Shown here: positions 13,781 to 52,905 of the stretch, one piece after another
Layout of the letters: each line of letters opens with the position of its first letter
Numbering within the stretch: position 1 is the stretch's first letter
Position numbers and translations under genes: made by a program
The notes under the pieces: generated by a model
The model's input: only the letters and a program-made list of their open reading frames with translations
Database searches by the model: none
Told to the model about the DNA's origin: nothing
Source: Branchiostoma floridae
Lineage: Eukaryota > Chordata > Leptocardii > Amphioxiformes > Branchiostomatidae
Reading direction: 5' to 3'
Assembly: GCF_000003815.2 (NCBI RefSeq)
Contig: NC_049986.1
Coordinates: 20,621,254-20,685,253 of the forward strand
Length of the DNA: 64,000 nt

Positions 13781-13783
13781 GAA

Positions 13784-15161: not shown

Positions 15162-15259
15162 GTAACCAAAGCCTTACACACACTTGTCTATATTTGCTTT
15201 TTTCAGGACAGCACTGCAGTGAAAGCCAACACATATTTACAATGTGTATACTTAATGTG

Positions 15260-15349
15260 TAGCCTGAGTACCATCCTCTGTAGTGACCGCTGGCACAATA
15301 CGTTCGCTTGCGAATGTAGCAGTCACTACAGAGGATGATACTCGGGCTA
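15260..15349. mobile_element. 90-bp inverted-repeat element
   Basis: A near-perfect hairpin: TAGCCTGAGTACCATCCTCT at the left, and on the right AGAGGATGATACTCGGGCTA. The central loop carries ATACGTTCGCTTGCGAATG. It lies in the inferred intron of zinc-finger gene B. Its first three bases happen to supply the stop codon if the intron is not removed. Confidence 0.85.
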
Positions 15350-15810
15350 CTTAATGTGTGGGGTATGTACAGTAGAAGCTGTTTAATTGCACAGCCCATT
15401 TGCCAGCGTGTTTCGTGCAATTAACTGGCCGGGTAGTGTAACAGTGCAAATTTATTAGTATCCAGCTGGACCGCACCGACTTGGGATTTTGGGACTCCAG
15501 GCAATTAACAAAAGTGTGTGGTAATCCGTTGTGCAATTAACTGGCTTCTACTGTACATTACAGCTGACAAGCTGCAAATGCCGACATTATCTTGATATGT
15601 AATTAAAAAGGCATACTATCTTGTTGTTGCACACATGTTAAAATGGTTGCATTTTATCTTGTAGTTAAAAAAGACCTTATGAAAGTTCCTGTACTTTTGC
15701 TGTATCATCAAAATTGTCCTTCTTTATCATCCATTTAGTCATTGTGTTTCCAGGACGTTAAACATGGGCATTGATTGACTTTTTTCCATCTTGTTTTTAC
15801 CTGCTCCTAG

Positions 15811-17601: not shown

Positions 17602-19558
17602 TTAAGCCTTGGGCCTTATTTTCATCTCGGTGAATTTTAGCGACTCTTCAGGCCCTTTAAAGTCAACCCAATTGACTCCCTTCCCGTAAGTGTTGTCACC
17701 ATAAGCACCGTTCAGGTTAGCATGGTGACAGTCATTGTACCACCAGGCTCCTGTGAACTGGACGGCACAGTGAGAGCCCGAGACGTCGTGGTCTCTGTCC
17801 CCGTCCTTGGTGCTGATCTGCATCCCGCTGTGCCAGGCCATGCTGTCACCTGAAGGAAAATAAAGGACCATTTATTATTATCTGTGGGGAAGTGTGGCGT
17901 TACTATAGGGTGTTTGGCCTTGAAACCAGAGGTTCTGAGTTCGAATCCTGTCTTGTACCCTTGCGAAAGATACCATACACGAATTTCCTCATTCCACCCA
18001 GACGTAAAAAAGGGGTACCGGACTTCGGCTAGGGAGGTAAAAGGTGGTGAAAAGAGAAGGTTGGGCTCCACCTCCCAATACCGTGCTCTAGATACAATGG
18101 ATAGCAACTCACTGCAGCTTCGGTATTTAAAAAAAGGGTTGTTGCATGCACTGCACTAACTGGTTAGAGTGGCGGTCGTTGGGTGGTTCTAAACTGAGGT
18201 AACTTTTTTTATTCATCCCCACAAGTTATACACGTGAGCTTTTCACGATGTAGTCTATGGCTACGAAGGTAGAATAGTGGCACCACCTAATAATAATGAT
18301 CTCTGACTTCCAAACTTGTGCACAAACTGTTTTCGTGTATGTAATGCAATTACAATGACATTCTGGTAACTCGACCTATTAAATAGATTGTAGAATGATT
18401 TTAAATTAGCTCGTTAGGTAGGTTGTAGAGTTATTGATAATGCTAGTGACGTGAAACGTTATATTACCATTCCTGTGTTTTTCTCTGTCCCTACTTGTTG
18501 ACTATCCAATATCAGCTACGCTGCCTTAGAGCCTGTGTAATGTACTCGACACATTTGCTAAGAACAACGATGTGCACACCTGCAGTTCCGCTGTAGCCCT
18601 CAACCACCAGCCTGTACTTGTCTGACTCATCCCCGACGCTGAAACTGTCGTACACCGCATACGCAGTAACCCCTTCCACAGCCTCCAAATCCACCCTCAG
18701 CTCGTAGGCTTTCTGAGTCGTCAGGCGGTGAAGATTGTCGTTTCCCAGCCAGAACTCGCCGCTCACACTGCCGAGAGGGAAGCCTGCCTTGTAGCTCTTC
18801 CAGTCCAAGTAGAAGTCGACCGATCCGTCCTGGCGTCTCTGGAACACCTGAAAAGTTAACGTAAGAAAGTAATGGACGTATCATGTGAAGATGGGTACTT
18901 CTGATGGGAGAGGTATTATGCAGTGCTACTAGTATTAAACTGGTACATGGTAGCTGTAAGAACTCAATTACACACGCATAGTCAGTCACACAAATACAAA
19001 GAGAGAGATACGCTCCGCTTGCACACACACATACAATAGCCAGGCACACACGTAAACACATAGATAAACTCATACACGTAGACAGACCTTCCCTGGAACA
19101 CCTTGAAAGTTTCAGAACAAGTTTAGGGTAAGACAAAAAATAGGACGTAAGGACGGGACGCTTATGCGGAAGAGGTATTTCACACTGCTATTATACTGCT
19201 GGCAATACAAGAACTCCATTGCGCACGCAAAGACAGACGCACACACACATGCGCATATACAGGAACACAAGCAGATGAATGGATACGCAGACAAATAGAC
19301 AGACATTGACATATTACACAGACAAATAGACAGCTAGACGCACACACGCGTGCACGCTCGTGCGCAAAGACAAGGAGCAAAGTGAACATCTGATAAGTCG
19401 TACCGTCCAGCCGCCCCCGTCGGTGTCCATGTCACAGTACACCAGGAGCGCCCCCTGGCGGTCCCGCGGGTACACCGTGTAGGGTCCGCTGGGCAGGTCC
19501 GGGCCGGAGAGATGGATGTCCTGACAGTCTTCCGGTAGAAAGGCGGGTCCTCGTGGTC
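17602..19558 (-). CDS. mosaic gene exons 31-33: fibrinogen-related domain
   Basis: Exons 19558-19404, 18847-18580 and 17849-17602 encode residues about 1615-1837 and the stop. It is a full FRe[65 protein letters not shown], then [30 protein letters not shown] and TEMKIRPKA. Four cysteines give the two usual disulphides. The DRDHD segment matches the calcium site of tachylectin and ficolin type domains, which bind acetylated sugars. It ends right after KIRPKA, as FReDs usually do. Confidence 0.95.
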
Positions 19559-22500
19559 CTGAGGCACAGCAAAATAGAGAGCGGTGTAGACCAAAAAGGA
19601 ATTCCGTTACGTTAACGGTAGTTAGACAATCAGGTAAAGCTTGGTTCACATGTGCGTAATAATGCATTTAATTGTAATCAGTGGCCAAACGACCGTATGG
19701 AAGTCTTAACCTCTACCAGGCTCCACAGATCGCTGGAAAATAGTACAAATTGGACAGATATAGACGCATAGCATGCCAGAGGAATTAAATGACCGAGGAG
19801 TTTGGTTTGCGACCCATGGCCAGGTAACTTAGCCTGGGTACCATCCGGATAGAAGTTCGCTCCTATGTTCGCTTCTGCTATGAAACACAGAGAAGCGACT
19901 GTATATAGTGTACAATGAAAGTCAGAGCTAGAAGCGACTGTATATAGTATATGATGAACTCCGGAGCGAACTACTTTCCGTATGGTACCCAGGCTACAGG
20001 TAACTCGTTTGGGATGTTATCTGCCGATATTACGCCACTACATTAGCGTTGCAACCTTTATCCACAGCAAAACAAAACACTCAAATAAAGTCCCCACCAT
20101 AATAAGCAGTCTAAAAGTAATTACTGAAAGTTTATTGCAAGTTCGTACCCGAGGGCTAATTGCAAGTGACAAAAAGTGGCAGACAAACAATGGTAAACAG
20201 TAAACATTAGTAACCGACTTACTCTAGTGATGAATTTAATTAAATTAAATTAAATTAGACAAAGCACAAAACTTAGCTATAGTATAGGGCTTAAATTCTT
20301 TTTCGGAGACAGTAGAAGACGAAGGGTCCCACCTTTTCTATAATGTGTGGGTTTTGTGATGTTAAGAGGAAGGTAATTTACTTTTTGTCTGTAAACGTGG
20401 AGAGGTAAGAGTGGAATTTGGTGGCTTCTTTAAAAATCTCCTTCCTTTTACTTGATAATAAAAGGGACAGCTGCAGTTTGGAATAAACAGGAGTTCGTTT
20501 TCTACTGCATCTAATGTACAGTATTTACAAGTCTTTCGCGGACAAGTAACTCACCAAGCGCAACGTGGTAACACCCCATGACCTCCACTCTCATGCTGAT
20601 CCACCTGTGCCACGTCACGGGGACGATCCGCACGTACCTGGCGGTAACAGGTGACTGGAGCATGTGACCAACCGGCGTCGTTCTGTCAGTGTTACCTGTG
20701 AACACCTGGCGAAACACGGGGAAATGATAAGTTATATTTTTGCTTTATGGATGTTAATGTATTAATCCCATTTTGTCTGATCAGGGGGGGGGTGCCAGCA
20801 CCAACTTTGATGTCACTGTCGAGAGGACTAGGACTACGAAACTTGGTGACATTTCCTAAAATATTGTTGGTAAAAATTCTACGATAAAACCATGACTTTG
20901 TGATTTTTCGTGATTTTTTGGTTTCTGGCAGCCATATTTTCTCAAATTTACCAATTTTGGTTTGCACAATGAGGCTGAAAAAGGGGAAGGGCCCAAAGGC
21001 CTGGTCTAGATAGGGTTAAAGGCATGCAATACGCCTGCAATGCAGTATCTGAATGTTCAAAGCATAAAAACAAAGTCACTGTTTTTAGTCATCAACATAT
21101 CTTATTACACTGAGCATCAATATTCCCCAGGTATGTATGCGGCTTTTGTAGTGCCACGAGAACGTCTTAAAGTATGCGAACTTCCCTTGAACTTCGCGAA
21201 CTTCGCTTGAGTTGTCGAAGCACGAAGACACTTTTTTTTATTTCTGAGAAGATGATCCTTTTTAACATGGCGAATAACAGCATCATATTATGATAACTCT
21301 AGTCTACCGTATCGAATCCTTCGCTGTCTTGATAGGTCGTCCAAATGCCATGAGCGCCCCCTGTGTTGAACTGCAGCTTGTATGATGTCACCCATTGGTC
21401 ACCGTTAGCGCGACCTTGGGTGATCACCCCGGAAACGATCGCCATACCCAGGTCAATCTGAAAACAACACATTTGTTCAGGGGTCAGCAGCTATAGTATA
21501 CATTTTGTCACCAGTGATATAATCACCTTAATAGAGCTTCACGCTAGAGATTACAATATCAATCTTTTATTACACAGCTACTGTCCTCTGACAAGACCGG
21601 CAATAAAGATTCCTTATTTTTTTACACATCTTTATTTTCGTATACAATTGCTATAGTCTAAAGGCACGGCCGCAATCGAATTTGTCCTCCTTTTGTTGAC
21701 ATGTACGCACATGCCGATTTCTCTACAAAGAGCCATCCACAACTTCTGAAGTTATTCTGTCGACTAACCGTGACACCCATAAACAAACAAACAAACAAAC
21801 AAACCCACCCACAAAGAAATTACACCGCCCATCGTCAAGCATAAATGACACACTAGCTGCTATATATGCTGATGTTCACCCTGGTTAAAACAGACTTTTA
21901 GCCAGGGCCGGCAGAAAATGTGTTCGGCAGTCAAGGCAGGTCTTCCGAAGGACATTAGAAAAGCACACCCGGGACCTTCCATGCAGGGAGAATTGCAAGC
22001 CTTGCTTCCGTCTGGTGTCTCTTGCCGTACAGAGCATCCGAGAGGGACTGGTCAGTGCTATTAATAATGACCAAATCGCCTAGCTTACTGTAGCTGATGT
22101 TTAGTTCTTAAATAGCCCAGCACAGAAAAAAAGAAAACAGATTGAACCGAAAACATAACATTCTCTGCAAAGGTAAAGGTGATAAAACAATTCTTCTCTT
22201 ACCTGCAGCCACTCACTGGCGGTGTTAGACAGTGCGCACCAGGCACTCTCACTGTTCAGACGACTCTGAGGTTTCGGACAGCTCTGATGTGTAGATGATG
22301 TCGTGATGCTTTCGTCGAGGATGTGTCGAGATTCCATTCCCAGCGGAGAACTGCAGCCTTCAAAGCAATTATAGCCTTTGAAAACGATCCTGGGTTTACT
22401 TCTAAGTACATACTTTTTCAACTTTTATAACAATTATAATGATAATGATCTTAATTTGCACGTTCTTGCCCATATGGGCTAAATCCAGTAGTTTTTGTAG

Positions 22501-25500
22501 TACAATGTCTTATATCATACTATCTACCTAGACACACTTAGGCGAGAGTCTGGGCTCTACAGACAGCTGAGCAGCACAACTGAACTAAGATCACTGATGA
22601 AGGATAGGGAGGAGTGGAGTAGGAGGGTCCAGCAAGCTTCCCGAGTTGGATTCTGATGTCCTCAACTGACTGACTGACTGAGTGTAGTCAGATGATGTCA
22701 TTTAGTTTGTCATTTAGTTCGTCTTTTACCAATTTACCAACTGTGTATCTAAATTCAGGGCATTAATTAAAGAATTGCGTATATGCTATAGATAGTTATG
22801 CATTAAGCCATGTTGATTTCATTATATAATAGAATAGACTGTCAGTAGAATGTGAAGTGATAGAATAGAATAGAATAGAATAGAATAGAATAGAATAGAA
22901 TAATATAGTTCTGAGGAAGGGCAAACATACCTTCTTCCCTACAACCGAGCACCTCCACCCTCATACTGATGTGTAAAACCCAAGTCTGCACCACGAAGCG
23001 GACGTACTGGGCAGCCACGGGCGGGCGCAGGATGTGGGTTACCGGGGTCCTTCTGTCCGTGTTTCCGGTGAAAATCTGATGTGAAGAAAATTGCATAGTC
23101 AGAAGTTGTAAACATTTTTTGTGCGCTGAATATGTACTTGTCACAACAAATTTGGCATCAATAATTGATACTTGCCTGTAGGCGAACAAGGACGAACAAA
23201 ATTATAACACATCGGTAGCAAGGCACCTTGTCCGAGCCGTCGGTGTCCGTGTAGGTTGTCCAGGACCGTCCGCTCCGGCTGTGCTGTAGCTTGTATGACG
23301 TTACCCACTGGTCATGTGTATCCCGACCCTGCGTGATGACGCCGTGCACCACAGAAGTTCCGCCCAAGTCAACCTAGACAAAATACCATATTTCTGGCAT
23401 TAAAAAGACTATTCGAAGCAAATGTATGTTACCATTTTTCCATATTCTAGCCTTTGACATCAGATAGTGTTTTCCGACCTGGGTATGACGTGAATAAAAT
23501 ACAAACACGGTGAATTTCGTATCGCCCTCGGTCCACACGGAATACACCGTGTTGCATTCTATATCATTATATTTATACGCATGCATGATGCAGTGACTGA
23601 CTCCATGTCATTCGAAATAAAGAAGACGCACAATATGAATAGACTTTACCTGTAGCCATTGTCCTGCCTCCAAAGTTATACTCGCCACCCAAGCTGTCCT
23701 TCCCTCCAGCGTGTTCAGCCGGCCGTGGTACGTCTTGTGGTTGATGTCGTAGACTGATGACGCAGTGATGCTGCTGTCAGGGATGCTACCATCCTCCATC
23801 CCCATCGGCTCCAGGCAGGCTGCTAAACAACACGAAAAACAGTTTTAGAGCAAGGTGCGGAGTAGGTAGGACCAGAGACAACCTACTGAAATGGGGACGG
23901 GTGAACTCAGCTGAGTGTCGTTGTGGCCACCCAACCCAAACCATGGGACACATTACGAAGGACTGTGTATTAGGCCCCAACATCTCCAACCAGGACCTAC
24001 TAGAAGCTAACGAGAAGGCCGTGGCCTGGCTGCAGTACTGGCACGGAACGCTATCATGATAATGGTCAGGTCAGTTATATGCCAAGAAGGGTCAACTCCC
24101 AACCCTTAAGCAAAATCATCACAGGGAAGAGAGTGCAGCTGGCAGGGCACATCCTGCGCCTACCAAACCACAGACATTCCAAGACAGCCATGACTCGAAT
24201 TCCTCCAGGTGGAAAACGTAAGAGAGGCAGACCAAAAAAACACATGGAGGAGGCCATTCAGTGATGATCTGAGGGGAGCCAGCATCGCGTGGGGACAGGC
24301 AGAGATGGATGCGACTGACAGAGGAAGATGGAAATTACTTGCTGCCTAATGTGCCTCAATGCACAGGAGGACCTAAGGTCTAAGGTAAAGGTCAGTTATA
24401 TGCGATAGGGGCTTAATCAACTCCTAACCATGATCTGGAGACATTAATATCTAAATCTATAACAACATGAACATGTTGTCAGTTATGCTTGACAGGGATT
24501 TAACTCACAACCATGGTCTGGAGAAAGTCAGTGACCAGATGTGGTTAGCTATGTTTAAGTCAAGTGTTACTACTACGTATAGTATACAAGCTAGAGAGCA
24601 AAACTAGCGATCGCTGTTGTTGCTTATATCCGGGGTATTTGACGGCTGGTGCCTACCAGAAGGTCAGTAGATTGGATCAAAATTTGATATTTAAATTAGC
24701 AGATCAAATTACTGGCTAATATGTAACCTTTGCGAGGGGCCAGTCCTGGCCTATGCACATATATACATACATACATGCATGTAACCTTTGCCAAACACCT
24801 GCTTTTTGTCTACCACTGTGTCACCGAGACATCATCACGATCGCTCGTATATAATCATGTACTGACCGATGTCCTTGCATCCTAGCACCTCCGCCCTCAT
24901 GCAGATATACTCGTGCCAGGTCTCGGCCACAAACCGGACGTGCTTCGTCACGACGGGGGAGTCCAAAAGATGGGTTACCGGTGTCGTTCTGTCCGAGTTT
25001 CCATCAAACACCTAGGGGGAAAAAACGGAATTTTTGCTATCATTCTTTTTAAATTTTGTCATTAATCTGTATACCAATGTTACCCAAGCTGTCAACTAGG
25101 TATAGGTAATCTGTCAGTTAGCCATTGGTCAAATCTGCAGGAGCATAACACTACTAGTACATAGTTCATGAAGAAGAACAAGACATCCCTACTCGTTTGG
25201 AAAAAAATCCTGATTTCTTTTTATCGTCATTTTATCGGAGTTATAAAGTATGAATTGCATGCTGCAAATAGAAATTCAACTCTCTTAATACCGTAAGTTC
25301 ATGCAATGCCTATCATCGTTAGGCCCCAATACGGGATTTCTTACTTTTACTTCATATCAGTATCAAGAGCTGCGTATTCAAGCCACAACCCTTCACCTTA
25401 TCAGACAGGTCCTGGTTCTTGTACGGCGTGAAGGTCGTTCCATCCCAGCTGAAGTGGAGCGTGTAGGAGGTCACCCACTGGTTATACAGCGATTGACCGC

Positions 25501-46500: not shown

Positions 46501-49500
46501 NNNNNNNNNNNNNNNNNNNNTTGCTCGATGCTCGGCAGGCAACCGTGAGCTGCCCTGGGGATGTCCACGGGTACCCCGTAGGGGTCTGGCAGTGGGTCGG
46601 CCGATTCACCCCTTGTAGATGTATGGTCCTACTCTCCAAGCAGAGGTTAGNNNNNNNNNNNNNNNNNNNNNNNNNNNNNNNNNNNNNNNNNNNNNNNNNN
46701 NNNNNNNNNNNNNNNNNNNNNNNNNNNNNNNNNNNNNNNNNNNNNNNNNNNNNNNNNNNNNNNNNNNNNNNNNNNNNNNNNNNNNNNNNNNNNNNNNNNN
46801 NNNNNNNNNNNNNNNNNNNNNNNNNNNNNNNNNNNNGGGCGGTTATGGGCTGGCTCGTCTTTGTTGACTTTTGTGCGCCACGTGGTACTAACACTAGTAG
46901 AAGAGGAAAATGCCACTGCACTTCGATTGGCAGGGTGAGCACATGCCGCTTGCTCAGCTCAGGCTAAGCTCGAGGGTGGCGACGGCTCGTCACCGTTTCA
47001 TCCTTGCCCGGAAGCAGAGAGACAAGCGGAACGGCAACGCCAGAGAAGAAGATGTTGGGTTCGGCTCTGGTTGAGGCGCCGACCCATGTTTGGGTTCTAC
47101 GATACGCTGATGAGCAAGCTAGAAATGCGAGAACACTGTTGCAACTTTAAGTCATTTGTGCGCATGGTGTCTCAAATGTTCTATGACCTGCTCATGCGTG
47201 TGAGACCTTCCATTGAGAAGAGTAGAAAGTGAGTTTTTTTACTGATGATATATCCCTAATATTTTCCCCGCCGGGACCCCGGTTCAATTTAAGTCCGACT
47301 TAAAACCAACCGGGGCCTCGCCCGAGGCCAAAAATAACCCGGAAGCCGCTGGGAGACCCACAGGACACCCACCGGAAGAGCAAAAAAACAGTCCGTAAGT
47401 TACCCGCTCGGGTCCCTATGTGGAAATGTGACCATGGCCCAAATTGTCCCGTTCGATCAACCGAGGGACCCCGTCAGCGGCCCTGGCGGTGTTCCGGGAT
47501 GACACAACGGATGCAATAGTTTGTAATGCAATAATGTTGGGCCTGTACCGTCGAGTACCGTCGGGATGCCGGGCGGGTACTGGGTGGGTACTGTAGGGGA
47601 GCCTGTCGATGTGTCCACGATTAGTTGACGGCTTTGATTCGGCGTATTTTCCTACCCGGGGCCCGGTTGATTTTAAGTTCGTCTAAGAATCAACCGGGGC
47701 CCCGCCCGAGCCCCAAACTAGCCCGGCAGCCGCCGGGGGTCTCACGGGGTCCCGCCCGAAAGTGCAACAAATCAGCCCCTAACCTACCCGGCCGGACCCC
47801 TTTGTGTAAATGTGACGTTAGCATTATGTGGGAAGTGGACAAATGAGGATTTGTGTATTTTATAGCACTTAGAATTGGGTTGTAGTTTGGCACTTTCGAT
47901 CTGACTTTTCGTGGAGTTATATTGATAGTCGATGTGAAAACAAGTCGTTTAATCTTATAATTACTGCAGCACCGACTTGACAACGTTTAATTAAAAACAA
48001 TGAAAAAATCTCAGAATCTGAAAACGCTGAACACGAGAGAGTTAGGCTTAGGTCACATTTCCAAACCGGGGCCCGGCCGGGCAGCTTTCGGGAGCGAAAA
48101 GAGTGATATCAAAGACATCAAAATACACAAAATGTCAAAATAAGATACATAGGCATGATATCTTTACATTTCTAGGTATACATTTTCATTTTTCGTTTCT
48201 TAAGACATCCCGGTCGGGCCCCGGTTTGGAAATGTGACCTAAGCCTTAACAGGAACCAGCAGTGCAGTGGTGTATAGACTTGTTATTGTCGGCAACAGTG
48301 CTGACATGCTATACAAAACTTACCAGTTGTTGTAGTGTTGACCGGAGCCCATAGGACGCCAGTGTGTAAGGTGGTTGCCGTCTGCTGTCCTGTCGGCACT
48401 GTAACCGGCCGCGTCATCGGCCCAAGAACTTCCCGACGAACCGACGACCTCCACTTGGGGCAAACTGGAAAGTACTGCGATAAAATACAATAATTAATTA
48501 GATTATGTTGATAACACCAATTGTGAAGTACTCAAGGGAAAATTCAGTACGTTTATGAAGGTCAGATAACCAGGTAAACAGTATTCAAAGATAATTCAAG
48601 CTCTTTTTATGGTTCTCCTGTCGGTTCGACAGATGAGCAGGCAGACAGGCATTTACCTGTTTTGCCTGACCTGCACATGACTTTTTATGGTAAAGGAGGG
48701 GTGTGCAATTCCTTCTCCACCCTCTCGTCTACCGGAGCACTTCAACTGGATAAAATTGGGAGCTTACTATAATGATCTGGAGGTTACCCAAATAAATCAA
48801 TGAATGAATTATGGCACATTTTTGCCACACCGGGCTAGTAGAACCTATCAATACTCGTACGATTCAACATAAGTCAAAACTAGCTCATTCTATAGAGCTG
48901 AGGAAGAGTGAAGGAGGTCACTCGAAACGTCCGGATGTAATCTCCAAATTTTATCCGGTTGAAGAGACTGTCTTTAAACAGACAAGCATGATACAGTATT
49001 AGCTTGGTAAACCTAGCGATGATTTTATCATTTCTTTCGTGTTGAAATACGGTCCATGCTGCGGGCAAGGACAACGTTTGACACAAACATACTTTCATGC
49101 AATGATAAGTGCTTAATTTTAGAAAAAAACTTACGTTTCTGACAGACATAACCATCCGCTTTGGTGCAAGGCCAATCGTTCCACTGGTTCGGGATGGAAC
49201 CTGTATTAGGTCTTATCTTGACACAGTCATCGTTCTTTTTGTTGTTCGGCTGCCCCGGAATCCATGCGCTGAACTCACCCAGAGGACTCCCGTCTTCCCA
49301 AACAAAACTGCCCTCGTTTTCTATGTCGTTCAAACCGATCCAAACTCTCTTGTCTGGTGCCTGCAGATTTCTGAGGGAAACGACGAAATCGTGAGTGTCT
49401 TGGTCCTTAAAGATCCCAAGTGTCGCTCCTTCCTTGACGCAAGCGTCCCTCGCTTTCGTGTACGTCTCAGGCGTGTTCGTGAAAATCTTGAAGGCGTACC

Positions 49501-52500
49501 AACCGTGTTGCTTCCACTCGTCTTTGTCATCTGTAACAAACATTTAAACATGTATAACCATGTGCAAATTAAGACGATATTCTGTATATCGTGCCATTAA
49601 TAGATTGATAATGATTCATCGATTCTGTCTTATTCAAAACATACAGAAAGCATCAAAAGAAGAATGTTAAAGTCACAATTTCTACACATATACTAGCTAT
49701 AAGCTGAGCTTCTATATTATAGAGAAAGTGTGAGGCATAGGCCACATGATCACCATGTGTTGTCGACCGCATGAGGAACTCGACCGTCACATGTCTGATG
49801 ACAGTTTGGCTTTGTTTTTCTTGCCACTTACCTACTCATTTTCAAAAGGACGCTTTCTGGGAAGTAATGACTGCAATGATTTGAAATTTGGAGGATATTG
49901 ATAAAAGGCTTCTTACTACGAGGAGATCGAACTGGTAAAAATCCCGACCACTACTATCTCCACGACCCAACTTCTGCTTGGAGAATCTCTCTTAGCTACA
50001 TCCGTGCACTTCATATGACGTCATTAAAGTACGTACCTTCTTCAGACTGCCTTTCGTCCGTCTGACAGTCGTCTCCATGGAAACCGGCGGGACAAACGCA
50101 GGTGGGGCGGCAGTGGTTCGGCTGCGTCTGACGCGTCTTCAGCAGACGGGAGGTGCAGATCCCGCCGTTCCGACAGGGGTCGCTTCCCTCGTTGCACGGG
50201 CTCCAGATGCCCTAATAAGGAAGTATTTGGGGCCACATGACTAGGACGAAATTTGCGTCAGCCATGTTGGTGGGTTAAAGCCGAATGCGATTTCGCATTC
50301 TTTATATTAAAAAGACTTTTCCCATTCGTTTGACTTGAACATGGAAACCTACGTTTGCATACTTTTCAGGCAACAGCAAACTAGTTCATATGTCATACAT
50401 ATTGACCCAAGATGTGTCTACCTTATCTATCATTTAACATAGACCTGCCAGCTGACAAAGCATGGAAAGCTGTGCATTTTGCGCTAGTGTTTACGCAATC
50501 AGGTCACGAATCTCACTTGCTTTCAATAATTAATCAGCCTCTATTAAAAAAGCTTGTCCTCAATATTTTTGCGTATAATAATTCCACACAAAGCCACGTA
50601 ATGCAGACTCACAAAGAAGGCTATCGCATTGCGCTTGTAGTAACTCCACCCATTGACGGCTTTCACGTCTTCGGGAAACTCTCTCATGGTGGCATTGTTG
50701 ATCTCGCAGCGCTGCTCCGCCTGGCGGTACTGGTAGGATTTGCAGTCCGGTGTGAGGCGGCAGAGTTGAGCACACTGAGTGGAGTGGTCCACCTGAAACC
50801 ATGGAAACGCTGGATTGTTGCTTGTATTGCAAACGGTAGGGCGCTCATAACTTTAGTTTTCTTTTCAATACGATAATATAGATGTCTAGACAGGTACTAC
50901 TTTATTATTCATGTCCACTTGTCTACGTGCTATGTTAAACCATAGAACAGACAGATTGCCCTTTGAATTCCTTATACCCCCTCACATTAGGCGAAAATCG
51001 ACCGGACGACGATTCTGCGACTAAATTACAAGGAGGCATGACCCTGACGGGAAAGGGGGAACTCTGCAATTTCTTCGTCGGCAGCAGAGTCATGGATCCT
51101 CGTAATTTAGAGCTCGCAGACTCGTCGTCCGATCGATTTTCACTTAATGTGAGGGGGGTATAAAGATGTATCAAATGTCTTCCTTTTTAAAAGACATAGT
51201 CAGAGATACGCGTCAATGTCTTCGTGTATAATTATTGGCGATAAGCCATGGCAATAAAAACATTTTAAATGTGAACGTAAGACAAAGAATGGACTGGATG
51301 TTAAATCCTATAGTTAAGCAGCATTTTTATGATGGGTTTTTATGTTTTTGCCCTCGCGACTTTTGGTGTCTCCAGGCAGGGAATGTCATCCGTTAAATTA
51401 AGTCAGTATGGCCGTACCCCAGCATACAACTATATATTACATAGAGAGTTGATTCCCTCACTTTAGACACAAAAGTAGCACTGACAAATATATATTCCTC
51501 ATGCGCTTTGACAAACCGACAATAGCTAAACCCATACAGTCCTACATTGTCACCATTACCAAGAAGCGAGAAGAAGCCGAACTTATAGACTAGATTTGTG
51601 ATACTCTTATTGTCTTGTTGTGACCTGTACTTTGCTCGATTGGGCAAAACTGTACAATAAATGTCTTCATTCATATAACAAAACTATAACATGTATCTAC
51701 AAGGGAAGTTACCTTGTAGTACGTGTTGATCCAGTGAAGATGCAGCCATTTGTTTCTGACAGCCTCCTGCTCAGCCTGTTTCTCCATGGCCAACAGCCCT
51801 TCCTCTTCGCTATCGTACCTATTAATGAAAATTCACTCGAGTTGCACAAATAATTAAATAGACAACAGAATGTTTAGATCTTAGAAACCCTCATGCAAAC
51901 GCGGGTAACCCCCTTATAGTAATGTTCTGTACATGTTATATCTTGCAATAACGATGTTACAATCATTACATTTCCTTCTTTTATCTAAATCTAGCTGTAG
52001 AAGCCGTAACGGATGTCCATTTATATACCACAGTCACATTTGCAAACCAGGGCCCGCGGTCGGACTGTTTTCGGGAACGCAAAGTATACTACAAAAGACA
52101 ACAAAACACGTAGAGCGTAAAGTATAAATAGTCATTGCTATGATCTGTGTGTATTCCTTAATAAACACTTTTGTTTATTTTTTTGTTTTCCCGGAACATC
52201 TAGCCTGGGTACCATCCGGAAAGTAGTTCGCTCCGGCGTTCATTATATACTATATACAGCCGCTTCTAGCTCTGACATTCACTATACGTAACGTTATATA
52301 CTCTATATACAGTCGCTTGTCTGTTGGATAGCAGAAGCGAACATAGGAGCGAACTACTATCCGGATGGTTCCCAGGCTACGTCACATCCCGACCGGTTCA
52401 GAAATGTGACCATATCGCTACTTTGCATACAGTTGTGGTGGTACTATTTAGGCCTACATTACATTATGACACATTTCCTACCCAGGGCCCGGCCGGGCTG

Positions 52501-52905
52501 TTTGTGGAAACGAAAATTAATGTTTATTTATTTAAAATGCGACGGTAGATTACACAGACCTATAGGCGGCACAACTGATTGCATAGATCTACAAATAACA
52601 TAACGTACAACGAAAATTAACATAACATATATAACATAACATAACGAAAATTAATGTTTATGCCTGAGTGAATATGAATATGCACAAGGCATGCTGTTAA
52701 ATTTTTTTCAGTCTGCTTTATGTTTTTTATTTTGTTTTTTGCTTTTGTCTTTGATGCCGTAATTTCGTTCCCAAAACATCCTGACCGGGCCCCTTTTGTG
52801 GAAATGTGACGGTAGCCGTACTCACCTAACCGCCTGGACACACGTACACAGTCCCAGTACTCCTACTAAGAGGAGGAAAAACGCCACAGAACAACCTGGC
52901 GTCAT
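17602..52905 (-). CDS. secreted mosaic multi-lectin protein (33 exons)
   Basis: One gene predicted to encode a secreted 1837-residue protein. Coding exons from 5' to 3': 52905-52826, 51818-51713, 50792-50613, 50211-50037, 49530-49135, 48474-48324, 46116-45824, 40366-40281, 39877-39758, 39468-39306, 38876-38832, 37941-37761, 36837-36593, 35474-35270, 34962-34742, 32553-32314, 30782-30712, 30278-30162, 29622-29463, 28893-28852, 28458-28279, 27108-26939, 25546-25397, 25011-24867, 23822-23650, 23373-23227, 23075-22931, 22357-22203, 21457-21308, 20705-20555, 19558-19404, 18847-18580, 17849-17602. Lengths total 5514 nt, with GT/AG at each junction and matching phases throughout. Domain order is signal peptide, helix, PAN, EGF, CTLD, galactose-binding-like, CUB, FTP, CTLD, PAN, CUB, CCP, three F5/8C, FReD. 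The likely role is extracellular carbohydrate or ligand recognition, for example in innate defence; this is inferred from domain families. I do not recognise a named orthologue. Confidence 0.88.
17883..18105 (+). mobile_element. tRNA-derived SINE
   Basis: GTTCTGAGTTCGAATCC at about 17932-17948 matches the B box of tRNA-type Pol III promoters, and the upstream ACTATAGGGTGTTTGG region could hold a decayed A box. The body has CCTCATTCCACCCAGACG and GGGGTACC segments that recur in the element at 59500-59730. The element sits in an intron of the mosaic gene, opposite to its transcription. Confidence 0.6.
18950..19340. repeat. CA-rich low-complexity stretch with internal duplication
   Basis: The intron between the first two FReD exons contains two related blocks of about 230 bp (roughly 18870-19100 and 19100-19330). 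Each has GACGGAC/GGACG-like and AGAGGTATT segments and then CACACACA-rich DNA. It is non-coding. Confidence 0.6.
19830..19996. mobile_element. 167-bp MITE, TAGCCTGGGTACC family
   Basis: TAGCCTGGGTACCATCCGGA at the left pairs with TCCGTATGGTACCCAGGCTA at the right, and GAAGTTCGCTCC with GGAGCGAACTAC. Two direct GAAGCGACTGTATATAGT copies lie in the middle. It is the same family as 52201-52379. Confidence 0.9.
20555..22357 (-). CDS. mosaic gene exons 28-30: F5/8C domain C
   Basis: Exons 22357-22203, 21457-21308 and 20705-20555 encode residues about 1463-1614. Motifs are [61 protein letters not shown] and MRVEVMGC. It has the same exon layout as A and B. Middle exon and last exon join as DT/VFTGN. 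The last exon joins in phase 1 to the fibrinogen-related domain ([18 protein letters not shown]). Confidence 0.92.
20718..21022. mobile_element. decayed element ending CCCTATCTAGACC
   Basis: The right end GGCCTGGTCTAGATAGGGTTAA resembles, in inverse form, TTAACCCTATTCAGACCGGG at 36150. A GGGGGGGGTGCC run near 20787 resembles its interior. The left boundary is uncertain. Confidence 0.35.
22500..22690 (+). mobile_element. LINE 3' fragment
   Basis: A plus-strand frame reads [18 protein letters not shown], similar to the extreme C-termini of non-LTR retrotransposon polyproteins. A GACTGACTGACTGA repeat follows it, which could be a LINE tail. Only this end is present. Confidence 0.5.
22848..22905. 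repeat. (TAGAA)n microsatellite
   Basis: About eight perfect TAGAA/AATAG units lie just past the last donor of F5/8C domain B. The same pentanucleotide, on the other strand, forms arrays at 30307-30450 and 39905-40130. Confidence 0.95.
22931..23822 (-). CDS. mosaic gene exons 25-27: F5/8C domain B
   Basis: Exons 23822-23650, 23373-23227 and 23075-22931 encode residues about 1308-1462, with the same structure and phases as domain A. Motifs are [64 protein letters not shown] and MRVEVLGC. The middle exon uses a weak donor, AAG/GTGCCT. A TAGAA repeat lies about 25 bp past the last donor. Confidence 0.92.
23870..24390 (+). mobile_element. LINE reverse-transcriptase 3' fragment
   Basis: Plus-strand frames show two pieces of a non-LTR retrotransposon polyprotein C-terminus. 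The first is [20 protein letters not shown] then MGHITKDC, with the CxCG-QTxxHIxxxC pattern. The second is [29 protein letters not shown] and [11 protein letters not shown]. The tail is TAAGGTCTAAGGTAAAGGTCA-like. Frames are interrupted between the pieces. The element lies in an intron of the mosaic gene, opposite to its transcription. Confidence 0.8.
24867..27108 (-). CDS. mosaic gene exons 22-24: F5/8C (discoidin) domain A
   Basis: Exons 27108-26939, 25546-25397 and 25011-24867 encode residues about 1153-1307. Typical motifs are [75 protein letters not shown] and MRAEVLGC. The first and last cysteines close the standard disulphide. Internal introns are phase 0 and borders phase 1. Such domains bind membranes or glycans through loops at the barrel tip. 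Confidence 0.93.
26385..26685. mobile_element. 301-bp MITE, AGCCC-CGGTTACAC ends
   Basis: The left end AGCCTAGCTTACACAAAGCC and right end GTGTAACCGGGGCTTA pair imperfectly, as do ATAGCTCCCGAA and TTCGGGAGGTAAA. GCTCCCGA segments recur through the body. It is non-coding. Confidence 0.75.
27808..27930. repeat. 61-bp tandem duplication in a dispersed repeat
   Basis: A unit of 61 bp (GTCGTATTGAGGTCACCTGA onward) occurs twice with one or two differences. Upstream, 27700-27770 contains CACGTTAAAGAACCC, a motif I associate with dispersed repeats of marine invertebrates. No gene is evident. Confidence 0.7.
28279..28458 (-). CDS. mosaic gene exon 21: CCP/sushi domain
   Basis: Residues about 1093-1152. 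[18 protein letters not shown], then [19 protein letters not shown] and [10 protein letters not shown] give the four cysteines and the invariant tryptophan of a complement control protein module. It is a single 180-nt exon with phase-1 borders, the classical mobile form of this module. Confidence 0.93.
28852..28893 (-). CDS. mosaic gene exon 20: short linker
   Basis: A 42-nt exon encoding [14 protein letters not shown] with phase-1 borders and strong splice sites (TTTTCAG and CAG/GTAAGT). It is the counterpart of exon 11. It joins CUB 2 to the CCP domain. Confidence 0.75.
29145..29275 (-). mobile_element. dispersed repeat with CGTCAGTGAC motif
   Basis: On the minus strand this contains GTCACTGACGAAAAACGCCGG followed by a CTGTCGGACAG-type run. 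It is a clear relative of 62630-62760. The family looks like the 3' part of a retroelement, but I cannot name it. Confidence 0.45.
29463..30782 (-). CDS. mosaic gene exons 17-19: CUB domain 2
   Basis: Exons 30782-30712, 30278-30162 and 29622-29463 encode residues about 963-1078. The four CUB cysteines are kept ([26 protein letters not shown]). It shares exon cuts, phases and many residues with CUB 1, for example GKRVELTF and SLGKFCG. The first exon uses a weak donor, GCG/GTGGGT. CUB 1 and CUB 2 are clearly duplicates. Confidence 0.88.
30300..30460. repeat. (TTCTA)n microsatellite
   Basis: About thirty TTCTA-type units with CGGTT variants begin about 25 bp from the acceptor of CUB 2's middle exon. 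The open frames across it are artefacts of the repeat. Confidence 0.95.
30969..31362. mobile_element. 394-bp inverted-repeat element
   Basis: TAGCCTGGATACCATACCCC at the left pairs with GGGGTTTGGTAACCAGGCTA at the right. The body contains an open stretch ([20 protein letters not shown]) that does not resemble a known protein. Ends match the TAGCCTGG family in this window, though the body is unrelated. Confidence 0.75.
31639..32043. mobile_element. 405-bp MITE, TGGCAATATATCTG ends
   Basis: Left TGGCAATATATCTGTTTCAA pairs with right TTGAAACAAATGTATTCCCA. The inverted arms run on through ATACGGGAGCTATAT and GTGACGTTTGACCT for over 100 bp. The body is rich in ACGTCAC and GACGT motifs. A half-element at 31430-31640 precedes it, and further halves lie at 33841-34050 and 36290-36587. 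Confidence 0.85.
32314..32553 (-). CDS. mosaic gene exon 16: PAN/apple domain 2
   Basis: Residues about 883-962. The sequence [19 protein letters not shown], then [29 protein letters not shown] and LCSDEEK has the PAN pattern, with the disulphide core around CxxxCCxxxxxCxSFxY. It is a single 240-nt exon with phase-1 borders. The donor is the less usual CAG/GTTGGA. Confidence 0.82.
32618..33842. mobile_element. 1.2-kb element with GGGCCCCC ends
   Basis: The left end TATATGAGGGCCCCCAAG and the inverse right end CTTGGGGGCCCCCGTATA pair over about 20 bp. Each arm contains ACGCTCTACGCTAAATT-type subrepeats. The centre has four diverged tandem units of about 190 bp, each with a CCCT(T/C)TGAAA block (near 32992, 33187, 33377, 33555). 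There is no transposase frame, so it is non-autonomous. Confidence 0.8.
33841..34050. mobile_element. left half of TGGCAATATATCTG MITE
   Basis: Beginning TATGGCAATATATCTG, this matches the left half of 31639-32043 and stops near CCACGTTACAGGCG. It abuts the preceding 1.2-kb element directly. Confidence 0.8.
34742..35474 (-). CDS. mosaic gene exons 14-15: C-type lectin domain 2
   Basis: Exons 35474-35270 and 34962-34742 encode residues about 741-882. Landmarks are [33 protein letters not shown], then [31 protein letters not shown]. The EPN and WND positions read EPD and WAD, so calcium and sugar binding may be altered. It is split by a phase-2 intron, unlike CTLD 1, and so was acquired independently. 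Half-copies of one MITE family flank the exon pair. Confidence 0.88.
36145..36290. mobile_element. fragment starting TTAACCCTATTCAGACC
   Basis: A G-rich fragment with the end TTAACCCTATTCAGACCGGG, which recurs inverted near 21000. It has no coding capacity and ends at the following MITE half. Confidence 0.4.
36290..36587. mobile_element. right half of TGGCAATATATCTG MITE
   Basis: The right half of the family at 31639-32043, ending TTGAAACAAATATATTGCCATA. Its end lies only about 5 bp from the splice donor of the second FTP exon. With 33841-34050 it flanks both CTLD 2 exons in the orientation of a single element's two ends. Confidence 0.8.
36593..37941 (-). CDS. mosaic gene exons 12-13: fucolectin-type (FTP) domain
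   Basis: Exons 37941-37761 and 36837-36593 encode residues about 599-740. The fold landmarks of fucolectin-tachylectin-4-pentraxin-1 domains are present: [39 protein letters not shown] and [16 protein letters not shown]. The fucose-binding pattern H-x26-R-x-D-x4-R is exact: the histidine of SCTHT lies 26 residues before RMD, followed by four residues and R. The adjacent CC pair seen in eel agglutinin is also kept. Binding of L-fucose with calcium is therefore a fair prediction. Confidence 0.92.
38832..38876 (-). CDS. mosaic gene exon 11: short linker
   Basis: A 45-nt exon encoding [15 protein letters not shown] with phase-1 borders. It matches exon 20 ([11 protein letters not shown]), which also follows a CUB domain, so CUB plus linker was copied as a unit. 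The single cysteine may be paired or free. Confidence 0.75.
39306..40366 (-). CDS. mosaic gene exons 8-10: CUB domain 1
   Basis: Exons 40366-40281, 39877-39758 and 39468-39306 encode residues about 461-583. All four CUB cysteines are present ([26 protein letters not shown]). Other CUB landmarks are [21 protein letters not shown] and the closing FSVAWQP. Internal introns are phase 0 and outer borders phase 1. An AGAAT pentanucleotide repeat sits about 30 bp upstream of the middle exon, as it does in CUB 2. Confidence 0.9.
39900..40135. repeat. (TTCTA)n-like microsatellite
   Basis: Diverged TTCTA, TTCCA and TCTGT units start about 25 bp from the acceptor of CUB 1's middle exon. The position matches the array beside CUB 2. 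Confidence 0.92.
40416..45476. mobile_element. 5.06-kb foldback element
   Basis: The arms 40420-41165 and 44726-45472 are inverted copies of about 750 bp with few differences. The same 62-residue frame (starting [12 protein letters not shown] or [12 protein letters not shown]) occurs in both arms. Outer ends read GAGTC(A/G)TTGCAGGAGAAAAC, each bordered by TTAA, which may be a target duplication. The 3.5-kb centre has only short frames (up to about 90 codons) with no recognised transposase, and a CpG-rich stretch at 44200-44560. It lies in the intron between the galactose-binding-like and CUB 1 exons. Confidence 0.85.
42496..42820. mobile_element. 325-bp MITE nested in foldback element
   Basis: TAGGGCTGGGTACCGGTAC at the left and TTGTTACCCAACCCTA at the right are inverted copies. 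The body has CCGGT-rich segments. It lies inside the 5.06-kb foldback element and so inserted later. Confidence 0.65.
45824..48474 (-). CDS. mosaic gene exons 6-7: galactose-binding-like module
   Basis: Exons 48474-48324 and 46116-45824 encode residues 313-460. Motifs are [16 protein letters not shown] and [12 protein letters not shown], later [26 protein letters not shown] and [13 protein letters not shown]. The order (DG-N-x-TxW, a W-YIVYD strand, ARYWR, WPPFLRE) resembles discoidin-fold galactose-binding domains but is distinct from the F5/8C copies downstream. Assignment to a named family is uncertain. The intron between the two exons is split by two assembly gaps. Confidence 0.65.
46421..46520. 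other. assembly gap (100 N)
   Basis: One hundred unknown bases within the intron between exons 6 and 7 of the mosaic gene. Flanks are GC-rich with CCCGGCCGGGC-type repeats, a likely cause of assembly failure. Confidence 0.99.
46651..46836. other. assembly gap (186 N)
   Basis: One hundred and eighty-six unknown bases, in the same intron as the preceding gap. Its non-round size suggests an estimated length. Confidence 0.99.
47260..47830. mobile_element. two GC-rich CCCGG element relatives
   Basis: Two blocks (about 47265-47450 and 47640-47815) each contain CCGGTT, a (C/T)TTAAG(T/C) hairpin and AACCGGGGCC, then end in a TGGAAATGTGACC or TGTAAATGTGACG segment. They resemble the ends at 48044-48246 and are probably decayed members of that family. 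Confidence 0.55.
48044..48246. mobile_element. 203-bp MITE, AGGCTTAGGTCACATTTCC ends
   Basis: AGGCTTAGGTCACATTTCCA at the left pairs with TGGAAATGTGACCTAAGCCT at the right almost perfectly, and the arms continue into AACCGGGGCCCGGCCGGGC. It is the best-preserved member of its family here. Others are at 52033-52410 and 52468-52810. Confidence 0.92.
49135..49530 (-). CDS. mosaic gene exon 5: C-type lectin domain 1
   Basis: Residues about 181-312, a complete CTLD in one exon. Landmarks are [33 protein letters not shown], then [21 protein letters not shown] and GYVCQK. The WND motif and nearby acidic residues suggest a working calcium site. The sugar-selecting triplet is QPN, mixing the EPN (mannose type) and QPD (galactose type) forms, so specificity cannot be read off. 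The exon is phase 1 on both sides. Confidence 0.93.
50037..50211 (-). CDS. mosaic gene exon 4: EGF-like domain
   Basis: Residues about 123-181. The motif [18 protein letters not shown], later [17 protein letters not shown], gives the EGF pattern: C, C-x-N-G-G-x-C, C-x-C-x3-G-F-x-G-x2-C. An extended loop with a possible extra cysteine pair lies between the third and fifth core cysteines. The exon begins in phase 0 and ends in phase 1, where the run of phase-1 module borders starts. Confidence 0.85.
50613..50792 (-). CDS. mosaic gene exon 3: PAN/apple-like domain 1
   Basis: Residues 63-122. The cysteine pattern in [20 protein letters not shown], then RCEINN and a GWSYYKR end, fits the core of PAN/apple modules (C-x3-C, C-x-S-Y-x-Y, then C near an asparagine). 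It is short and lacks the outer cysteine pair, so it is a minimal PAN. Both borders are phase 0, unlike the later PAN exon. The two were therefore probably acquired separately. Confidence 0.7.
50973..51162. mobile_element. 190-bp hairpin MITE
   Basis: TATACCCCCTCACATTAGGC pairs with CACTTAATGTGAGGGGGGTATA, followed inward by GAAAATCGACCGGACGACGA and its partner. Nearly the whole element folds into one hairpin. It lies between exons 2 and 3 of the mosaic gene. Confidence 0.92.
51713..51818 (-). CDS. mosaic gene exon 2: acidic/helical linker
   Basis: Residues 27-62 of the mosaic protein. The segment [19 protein letters not shown] then [16 protein letters not shown] is charged, lacks cysteine and is predicted by eye to be helical. 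It could drive oligomerisation, a common arrangement at the N-terminus of soluble lectins. That role is inference. The exon runs from phase 2 to phase 0. Confidence 0.75.
52033..52410. mobile_element. GTCACATTTGC-type MITE interrupted by another
   Basis: The ends GTCACATTTGCAAACCAGGG and CCGGTTCAGAAATGTGAC pair, as in 48044-48246. The right arm is split by an insertion of the TAGCCTGGGTACC element at 52201-52379, which dates this copy as the older of the two. Confidence 0.8.
52201..52379. mobile_element. 179-bp TAGCCTGGGTACC MITE
   Basis: TAGCCTGGGTACCATCCGGA at the left and CCGGATGGTTCCCAGGCTA at the right pair. It shares GAAGTAG, AGCGAACTAC, TATATACAGTCGCTT segments with 19830-19996 in inverse order. 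It is inserted in the right arm of another MITE. Confidence 0.9.
52468..52810. mobile_element. GACACATTTCC-type MITE next to exon 1
   Basis: Left GACACATTTCCTACCCAGGG and right TTTTGTGGAAATGTGAC pair, with CCGGCCGGGC and GACCGGGCCCC inside. The end lies about 15 bp from the exon 1 donor of the mosaic gene. Confidence 0.8.
52826..52905 (-). CDS. mosaic gene exon 1: signal peptide
   Basis: The exon encodes [18 protein letters not shown] then LCTCVQA, a hydrophobic core followed by small residues, which is a standard secretory signal peptide with a likely cleavage after VQA. The donor AG/GTGAGT is in phase 2 and joins exon 2 to give AVRYDSEEE. The ATG at 52905 is the only one that puts a signal peptide in frame with the downstream exons. 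A transposon copy ends about 15 bp beyond the donor. Confidence 0.82.

What the first reader, a model, noticed from the sequence alone, without database searches (positions are those of the whole stretch)
17602..52905. A 33-exon secreted protein combining seven or more recognition-domain families
Seen directly: 33 minus-strand exons can be joined at GT/AG sites with matching phases into an unbroken 1837-codon frame with signal peptide and stop. Known families, in order: PAN, EGF, CTLD, galactose-binding-like, CUB, FTP fucolectin, CTLD, PAN, CUB, CCP, three F5/8C, FReD. CTLD, FTP, FReD and F5/8C families often bind glycans, so one molecule could read several sugar types at once and tie recognition to CUB/CCP-type complement-like contacts. 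I know of no protein with this order. The function is inference.
Basis: partly seen in the sequence, partly recalled or inferred. Interest (0 to 1): 0.88.

Follow-up and report, generated by a model that had tools for sequence, protein, structure and literature searches.

The report
Lancelet mosaic lectin from shuffled exons
In a lancelet-like genome, a 33-exon gene for a secreted sugar-binding protein has been put together from exon cassettes that also lie, in other orders, at many places in the same genome, two of them copied in recently enough that their introns still match, so it is a good place to watch exon shuffling although this kind of protein is already known from lancelets.

Summary
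My own model of the same stretch gives 33 minus-strand exons, 52905-17602, 1828 codons, with a signal peptide and one stop. The domain calls hold too. An unbroken frame alone proves nothing: a lax gene finder also joins 86-88 'exons' here. What supports one gene is two relatives in the same genome. C9:11.40-11.42 Mb has the same signal peptide, exon 2, PAN, EGF, CTLD, galactose-binding and CUB block, then F5/8C and CCP domains and its own stop. C8:12.23 Mb runs PAN-EGF-CUB-...-FReD. No other scored cluster holds all four cassette kinds counted, but the kind is not new: 52 of 257 same-strand clusters mix them in other orders. The new point is origin. CTLD2 and PAN2 (exons 14-16) lie, with intron DNA, in cassettes 84-95% identical to copies elsewhere, bordered by a short transposon-like repeat. 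The fucose site of the FTP domain is complete; CTLD2 has lost canonical residues. Best reading: a secreted multivalent lectin made by lancelet exon shuffling. No RNA was available; inclusion of exons 14-16 and 31-33 in one mRNA is inferred.

The parts
51713..52905 (-). Exons 1-2 (52905-52826; 51818-51713): signal peptide [26 protein letters not shown] and a conserved segment [20 protein letters not shown]...
   Evidence: Top-ranked signal-peptide-like first exon of 35 kb; exon 2 is 83% identical in the C9 relative, where the signal peptide reads straight into it without an intron
50613..50792 (-). Exon 3: PAN1 domain
   Evidence: PAN_1 4e-9; 82% identical in C9 relative
50037..50211 (-). Exon 4: EGF-like domain
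   Evidence: PF00008 E 3e-4, 21.4 bits against a cut-off of 21.5; not found at E<=1 in the longer piece; 79% identical in C9 relative
49135..49530 (-). Exon 5: CTLD1, single exon, phase 1-1, QPN/WND
   Evidence: Lectin_C 4e-20; best PDB match macrophage mannose receptor 9e-39; motifs
45824..48474 (-). Exons 6-7 (48474-48324; 46116-45824): galactose-binding-like (discoidin-fold) domain, phase 1-1; large family in this genome
   Evidence: F5_F8_type_C 28.4 bits against a cut-off of 28.2; 148 hits besides the window among the 150 listed, 32-63% aa; profile matches glucanase/chitosanase chains in PDB, E 4e-5
38832..40366 (-). Exons 8-11: CUB1 in three exons plus a 15-aa link exon (38876-38832)
   Evidence: CUB 4e-17; closest relatives are CUB2 of this gene and the C9 relative
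36593..37941 (-). Exons 12-13 (37941-37761; 36837-36593): FTP / F-type lectin domain, phase 1-1, complete fucose motif
   Evidence: PF22633 3e-21; PDB FBP32 1e-48, 1k12 lectin 5e-20; residues; 150 of 483 candidates scored in the genome, second-exon matches at 65-84% aa
34742..35450 (-). Exons 14-15: CTLD2, phase 1-1, EPD/WAD
   Evidence: Lectin_C 2e-13; inside a dispersed DNA cassette
32314..32553 (-). Exon 16: PAN2, phase 1-1
   Evidence: PAN_1 3e-5; best copies at 82-89% aa on other contigs, with flanking intron DNA
28852..30782 (-). Exons 17-20: CUB2 in three exons plus link exon (28893-28852), an internal duplicate of exons 8-11
   Evidence: CUB 1e-18; CUB1-CUB2 56-60%
28279..28458 (-). 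Exon 21: CCP/sushi domain
   Evidence: Sushi 2e-9; 55% identical CCP in C9 relative
20555..27108 (-). Exons 22-30: three F5/8C (discoidin) domains, three exons each, all phase 1-1
   Evidence: F5_F8_type_C, three stretches, 6e-81; first and third exon of the third domain pair best with the terminal F5/8C of the C9 relative
17602..19558 (-). Exons 31-33: fibrinogen-related domain (FReD) and stop
   Evidence: Fibrinogen_C 1e-76; PDB tenascin-C 5e-72, ficolin-1 1e-66; a PAN-EGF-CUB relative also ends in FReD. Least certain link of the gene: the C9 relative stops at its last F5/8C
33838..36587 (.). CTLD2 cassette: dispersed DNA segment carrying exons 14-15 with introns, between inverted copies of repeat R (33841-34005 and 36422-36586, 83% complementary)
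   Evidence: 94.2% over 2481 bp to C16:2.42 Mb (33838-36283); 11 loci on 5 contigs at 84-95%, several of them partial; inverted arms
31632..32621 (.). PAN2 cassette: dispersed DNA segment carrying exon 16
   Evidence: 90-93% identity over 390-954 bp to C17, C12, C3, C13, C4 copies; the C3 and C12 copies share the edge 32621
31639..32043 (.). Repeat R, near-palindromic copy of about 405 bp with TG on both sides; short inverted-repeat transposon-like element
   Evidence: R ends are preceded by TA in 16 of 17 copies seen in the fetched sequence, this one being the exception
36283..36587 (.). Repeat R copy at the FTP-CTLD2 junction; its end follows GTAGGC-TA, the first 8 bases of the intron after exon 13
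   Evidence: 76 matches listed in the genome, 40 of 105 candidates scored; junction sequence; 19 of 32 R loci lie within 10 kb of a cassette hit

Best explanation
One gene for a secreted, multivalent lectin of the lancelet innate-defence kind, built on a conserved N-terminal anchor (signal peptide, exon 2, PAN, EGF) followed by a string of phase 1-1 exon cassettes (CTLD, galactose-binding, CUB, FTP, CTLD, PAN, CUB, CCP, 3 F5/8C) and a FReD end. The cassettes belong to a dispersed pool that has been shuffled into many orders in this genome; CTLD2 and PAN2 came in lately as DNA segments with their introns, with a short transposon-like repeat (R) at their borders. It most likely works by binding fucosylated and other glycans on microbes or particles through FTP, CTLD1, the discoidin-type domains and FReD at once; each binding site is weak and the array gives avidity. 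Shown: exons, domains, relatives, cassette DNA copies, residues. Inferred: one mRNA, glycan binding, defence role, R as the agent of the shuffling.
For: Model and signal peptide. Domains. C9 relative with the same anchor through CUB in the same order, introns of about 435-750 bp between CUB, F5/8C, CCP and F5/8C, own signal peptide and own stop. C8:12.23 Mb relative: signal peptide (by eye), PAN 43%, EGF 33%, CUB 40-46%, farnesoic-acid-methyltransferase-like domain (Pfam 2e-12), FReD 39-51%, stop, within 8.5 kb. At my thresholds no signal-peptide-like first exon on this strand between 49.9 and 24.2 kb. From CTLD1 to the third F5/8C all 13 modules are phase 1 in, phase 1 out. Shuffling: 52 of 257 same-strand clusters hold two or more cassette kinds; random placement gave 1.3 on average and 6 at most in 200 draws. 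Copying of exons 14-16 with intron DNA. R near cassettes: 19 of 32 loci within 10 kb, about 1.5% of the genome lies that near. FTP fucose residues complete. No stops in the 12 comparisons with other copies of exons 14-16. No hydrophobic 19-residue window above 1.26 outside the first 40 residues.
Against: No RNA. Lancelet gene models are known for false fusions: a Lectin_C + fn2 fusion was refuted by ESTs (PMC4967905, section 12 read). The C9 relative has a stop where the window has a donor before FReD, and a weak signal-like exon lies in that last intron (19774-19717). The signal-peptide scan is blunt: 17 hits on this strand against 15 on the other, and in C9 the true signal peptide is outranked by a CV-repeat stretch that lies inside the CUB exons (26 hits). 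The C9 galactose-binding domain is split by an intron at another place than the window's. Exons 14-16 could be cassette DNA left in an intron: skipping them keeps the frame. dN/dS of those exons against other copies runs from 0 to 1.47 on 1-20 changes (0.19 in one 25-codon piece), so constraint is weak; two comparisons have gaps. CTLD2 lacks canonical residues. In the C8 relative the exon-2 match is weak (31%, E 0.011). Function rests on domain analogy only.
Confidence: 0.68

Rival explanations
1. Two genes: a mosaic lectin ending at the third F5/8C (stop about 20514) and a separate FReD gene at 19558-17602.
For: The C9 relative, whose last F5/8C pairs best with the window's third in two of its three exons, ends there with a stop and no donor found. 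Weak signal-like exon at 19774-19717.
Against: The window exon has a good donor in phase 1 at 20555 and FReD has a good phase-1 acceptor; the signal-like exon is poor and such hits are about as common on the other strand; the C8:12.23 Mb relative shows PAN-EGF-CUB...FReD in one tight locus; only about 1 kb lies between.
Confidence: 0.17
2. Exons 14-16 (CTLD2, PAN2) are cargo of dispersed elements lying in the intron between FTP and CUB2 and are not, or rarely, in the mRNA; the real protein has FTP joined to CUB2.
For: They lie in DNA segments 84-95% identical to copies elsewhere with R repeats at the borders; skipping keeps phase 1-1.
Against: All three exons are open, with good splice sites in the sense direction; the copies compared have no stops, and CTLD2- or PAN2-like hits lie on the same strand beside GBD or FTP hits at other loci, as parts of genes would.
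Confidence: 0.2
3. A structural or adhesion protein (matrix, cuticle, mucus or fertilisation), not a defence lectin.
For: Closest FReD in PDB is tenascin-C; F5/8C, CUB and EGF are common in matrix and adhesion proteins (general knowledge).
Against: Complete F-type fucose site, CTLD with WND, and a high-copy shuffled cassette pool; a lancelet fucolectin-CTLD-CUB-APEC clade is mostly dispensable and was discussed among defence genes (PMC12373286).
Confidence: 0.2

Closest known systems
Lancelet APEC proteins with fucolectin, two C-type lectins and CUB (PMC12373286)
   Same: FTP + CTLD + CTLD + CUB in one lancelet protein, read as pattern recognition
   Different: APEC end instead of FReD; no PAN-EGF anchor, CCP or F5/8C string is named in the section read
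Drosophila furrowed / CG9095 (F-type lectin + CTLD + CCPs + predicted membrane span; PMC5712786 passages)
   Same: FTP and CTLD in one protein with CCP
   Different: predicted membrane protein; PAN, CUB, F5/8C string and FReD not named; CG9095 has lost two residues of the fucose triad and canonical CTLD residues
Own-genome relative at C9:11.395-11.418 Mb
   Same: signal peptide, exon 2, PAN, EGF, CTLD, galactose-binding, CUB, CCP, F5/8C repeats, most exon edges
   Different: no FTP, CTLD2, PAN2, second CUB or FReD found at E<0.01 in the 100 kb fetched (three N runs, one of 5 kb); F5/8C lies between CUB and CCP; galactose-binding intron elsewhere; signal peptide and exon 2 fused; ends at F5/8C
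Own-genome relative at C8:12.2279-12.2361 Mb
   Same: signal peptide, PAN, EGF, three-exon CUB, three-part FReD, stop
   Different: farnesoic-acid-methyltransferase-like domain in the middle; of the other cassettes only two short weak matches (F5/8C 14 aa, E 0.002; FTP on the other strand, E 0.018)
Lancelet exon shuffling as a genome-wide process (Huang et al. 2014, PMC4284660, passages read)
   Same: 1-1 phase bias, promiscuous domains, transposon link proposed
   Different: here single cassettes with introns and a particular short repeat are seen at the borders of one gene's exons

Membership tests
F-type lectin domain (exons 12-13) | fold family / sequence relation | tested here: met
   FBP32 1e-48, lectin 1k12 5e-20
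F-type lectin domain (exons 12-13) | His-Arg-Arg fucose triad, RxDx4(R/K), paired cysteines, calcium motif h2DGx | tested here: met
   H637, R664-M-D666-C-C-S-D-R671, AVDGS; triad spacing equals His52/Arg79/Arg86 of eel agglutinin; the review prints the motif as HX24, and no H-x24-R was found, but its own residue numbers give 26 between, as here
F-type lectin domain (exons 12-13) | fucose binding | not testable with these tools
   needs protein
C-type lectin, canonical calcium site 2, CTLD1 | EPN or QPD and WND | tested here: inconclusive
   QPN at 274 and WND at 297; rule recalled
C-type lectin, canonical calcium site 2, CTLD2 | EPN or QPD and WND | tested here: not met
   EPD at 833, WAD at 856; CTLD fold membership itself is met (Lectin_C 2e-13)
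Ficolin/tachylectin-type FReD | full FReD with acidic calcium loop and CHxxNLNG | tested here: met
   DGDRDHD at 1762 and CHHANLNG at 1787 (motif recalled); ficolin-1 1e-66, tenascin-C 5e-72; ligand binding untested
Complement recognition molecule (ficolin/MBL class) | collagen stalk that binds MASP proteases (recalled) | tested here: not met
   no run of five Gly-X-Y triplets in the 1828-aa protein and no collagen-repeat family among the Pfam hits of its six pieces
Lancelet 1-1 shuffled mosaic protein | domain-coding modules bounded by phase 1 introns, domains promiscuous in the genome | tested here: met
   13 modules 1-1; 52 mixed clusters
R as a short non-autonomous inverted-repeat DNA transposon | terminal inverted repeats, target duplication, many copies | tested here: inconclusive
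   about 405-bp near-palindrome with TG/TG flanks; TA before 16 of 17 ends seen; 76 matches; no transposase or empty site checked

The most novel reading that the evidence does not exclude
Lancelets keep a pool of interchangeable phase 1-1 lectin exon cassettes (FTP, CTLD, PAN, galactose-binding) that move as DNA with their introns, and a short TA-target inverted-repeat element, R, sits at the break points and drives the moves by composite transposition or by recombination between R copies. The window gene is a product caught soon after two such moves, so receptor diversity arises between genes and individuals by germline cassette exchange.
Probability: 0.3. Interest if true: 0.82.

Novelty: new variant of a known kind. 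Interest (0 to 1): 0.57.

Why it matters
Whether lancelets really shuffle domains faster than other animals, or only seem to because of bad gene models, has been argued in print since 2014 (PMC4284660 against PMC4967905 and PMC6071037). This locus makes the question testable on one gene: cassettes whose intron DNA is still 84-95% identical to copies elsewhere show that DNA carrying whole domain exons has moved between loci, and a few junction reads would show whether the moved exons are used. The R repeat gives a suspect for the agent.

Tried and rejected
Open frame as proof: rejected, because a lax gene finder joins 86-88 exons without a stop in the same stretch. Gene split inside 50-24 kb: looked for by scanning signal-peptide-like first exons; none on this strand at my thresholds, but the scan is blunt (17 hits in all against 15 on the other strand; in C9 a CV-repeat outranks the true signal peptide). 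R pair 33841-34005 / 36422-36586 as one transposon carrying CTLD2: possible, but the C12 and C16 copies end at 36283 without the outer R and with different neighbours, and R ends have TA next to them anyway, so TA on both sides is no extra proof. F5/8C-FReD pairs elsewhere as a test of the last link: the F5/8C search scored 150 of 902 candidates and I drew no count from it. FTP cassette at DNA level: search not answered, left open. No structure prediction or fold search was run.

Each search scored only its best candidates (150, or 40 for DNA), so counts are lower bounds. The random control spreads hits over one line of genome length and does not model gene clustering; R and cassette hits are not independent, since some cassettes carry R.

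Full report
What was checked. I rebuilt the gene from the minus strand: open pieces with recognisable domains as seeds, splice-site scores, phase-consistent chaining, then a hand-finished model. The finding's end coordinate led me to the first exon and its exon count to the second; both were later supported without it. The model has 33 exons of 42 to 396 nt, 32 GT-AG introns, 5487 nt, 1828 aa and one stop, from 52905 to 17602.

What does and does not count as evidence. An unbroken frame is cheap: with a weak exon penalty the program chains 86 or 88 pieces into unbroken frames of 2526-2641 codons. The evidence is homology. Pfam finds, in order, PAN, EGF (just under its cut-off), CTLD, a discoidin-type domain, CUB, an F-type lectin domain (PF22633; PDB relatives FBP32 and lectin 1k12), CTLD, PAN, CUB, CCP, three F5/8C and a FReD. 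The discoidin-type domain of exons 6-7 is of a family with 148 hits besides the window among 150 scored, many of them in one exon, and its profile matches glucanase/chitosanase chains.

One gene or several. This matters, since a false fusion of a lancelet lectin gene has been shown with ESTs (PMC4967905, abstract and section 12 read; PMC6071037, abstract and sections 13-14 read). Three things speak for one gene. First, exon 1 is the best signal-peptide-like first exon of the 35 kb and no other passes my thresholds on this strand between 49.9 and 24.2 kb; the scan is blunt, with 17 hits here, 15 on the other strand, and 26 in the C9 locus where a CV-repeat inside the CUB exons outranks the real one. 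Second, a relative on another chromosome-size contig, C9:11418455 down to about 11395420, has signal peptide + exon 2 in one exon (exon 2 83% identical), PAN (82%), EGF (79%), CTLD (56%), the galactose-binding domain (51-64%, split by an intron at another place than here), CUB (56-66%), then F5/8C, CCP (55%), F5/8C, F5/8C, a 5-kb gap, F5/8C, F5/8C and a stop; donors or acceptors sit at or near most aligned exon edges, with no acceptor found for the first exon of the last F5/8C. Its introns between CUB, F5/8C, CCP and F5/8C are about 435-750 bp, leaving little room for gene ends and starts. Third, C8:12.2279-12.2361 Mb reads signal peptide (by eye) with a weak exon-2 match (31%), PAN (43%), EGF (33%), three-exon CUB (40-46%), a farnesoic-acid-methyltransferase-like domain and a FReD (39-51%) with stop. 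The last link, third F5/8C to FReD, is the weakest: in the C9 relative the matching F5/8C is the end of the protein.

The anchor and the cassettes. Exons 1-4 have phases 0/2, 2/0, 0/0 and 0/1. From CTLD1 on, every module before FReD runs phase 1 to phase 1: CTLD1, GBD, CUB1, link1, FTP, CTLD2, PAN2, CUB2, link2, CCP and three F5/8C, 13 in all. Any of them could be skipped or added without breaking the frame. CUB1's closest relatives are the C9 CUB and CUB2 of this same gene, so an internal duplication is likely.

The pool. Searches of the own genome scored about 150 hits each for the galactose-binding domain, FTP and CTLD2/PAN2. Grouped by strand and 12-kb gaps the typed hits fall into 257 clusters; 52 hold two or more kinds, 10 hold three or more, only the window holds four; random placement gives 1.3 on average and at most 6 in 200 draws. 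Orders differ: GBD-FTP, FTP-GBD, CTL-GBD-FTP, PAN-FTP-GBD, GBD-FTP-PAN, FTP-CTL and more. Clusters are not proven genes.

Recent arrivals. The CTLD2 exons with their introns match C16:2.42 Mb at 94% over 2.48 kb, C16:2.03 Mb at 93%, C12:15.81 Mb at 93%, C16:2.12 Mb at 91-95% in two pieces, and shorter stretches on C14 (three loci, 84-85%), C9 (three, 88-91%) and C18 (91%): 11 loci on 5 contigs besides the window, 40 of 4637 first-look candidates scored. PAN2 with flanking intron matches C17, C12, C3, C13 and C4 at 90-93%. The C16 and C12 matches end at window 36283, and the other edge, 33838, is the start of a repeat R that the C16 copy shares. R copies stand at 31639-32043 (a near-palindrome of about 405 bp with TG on both sides), 33841-34005 and 36283-36587, the last with its end 8 bases inside the intron after exon 13 (GTAGGC-TA). 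TA precedes 16 of 17 R ends seen in the fetched sequence. Of 32 R loci 19 lie within 10 kb of a cassette hit; about 1.5% of the genome lies that near. R therefore goes with the cassettes, either because it rides in their introns or because it helps to move them; the data do not decide. Exons 14-16 differ from the other copies with dN/dS between 0 and 1.47 (PAN2 0.44-0.70 in five long comparisons, 0.19 in one 25-codon piece), on 1-20 changes each, with no stops in 12 comparisons and gaps in two: weak constraint or diversification.

How it most likely works. Secreted (signal peptide; no 19-residue window above 1.26 hydropathy outside the first 40 residues), 68 cysteines, many small ligand-binding folds in line. 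The FTP domain has the full fucose set with the spacing of eel agglutinin and the calcium motif. CTLD1 keeps WND and has QPN. CTLD2 has EPD and WAD and is unlikely to bind sugar in the canonical way. FReD keeps an acidic loop and the CHxxNLNG stretch and resembles tenascin and ficolin domains. So several sugar sites on one chain, giving avidity on glycan-rich surfaces, is the best guess; complement coupling was not supported by anything found, and a collagen stalk as in ficolins is absent.

Compared with what is known. Fast exon shuffling with 1-1 phase bias and a transposon link was proposed for lancelets in 2014 (PMC4284660, passages read) and disputed (PMC4967905, PMC6071037). A lancelet clade with fucolectin, two CTLDs, CUB and APEC, mostly dispensable between individuals, was reported in 2025 (PMC12373286, section 10 read). 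F-type lectins joined to CTLD and CCP are known from Drosophila (PMC5712786, passages read). So the kind is known; this order is new to the loci scored and the paper listings seen, and the cassette-with-intron copies at R repeats are a closer view of the process than the passages I read give.

Scores. That 52905-17602 is at heart one gene: about 0.85. That exons 14-16 are in its main mRNA: about 0.75. That FReD is: about 0.8. Defence lectin by glycan avidity: about 0.7. R as driver of shuffling: about 0.3.

Noticed in passing
window 10162-16745 (+): Open frames with C2H2 zinc-finger repeats (by eye), on the plus strand, convergent with the lectin gene; the last frame ends 857 bp from its stop.
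   Followed up: no
window 59187-59414 (-): Open frame with a homeodomain helix-3 stretch (QVWFQNRRAKFRR), upstream of the lectin gene (by eye).
   Followed up: no
window 12085-12399 (-): Open frame that looks like the N-terminal helix-turn-helix part of a mariner-type transposase (by eye).
   Followed up: no
window about 35459-35762: A common dispersed repeat (80-86% copies on many contigs among the 40 candidates scored of 4637) ends about 9 bp upstream of exon 14, so its acceptor region may be transposon-derived.
   Followed up: partly
G000:C8:23221280-23246360 (+): Array of PAN and EGF exon matches, 35-41% identical to this gene's anchor: perhaps a larger family of anchor-bearing genes.
   Followed up: no
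window 58176-59080: Imperfect short repeats giving long repetitive open frames on both strands.
   Followed up: no
L023 (C9:11418455-11418285) against window exons 1-2: Signal peptide and exon 2 are one exon in the C9 relative but are split by a 1007-bp intron inside an Arg codon in the window gene: an intron gain or loss within the family.
   Followed up: partly
L023 (C9:11415595-11415380) against window exons 6-7: The galactose-binding domain is split by an intron after VHDVK in the C9 relative but at the NNW codon in the window gene, while the 11 copies aligned are each read in one stretch of DNA.
   Followed up: no
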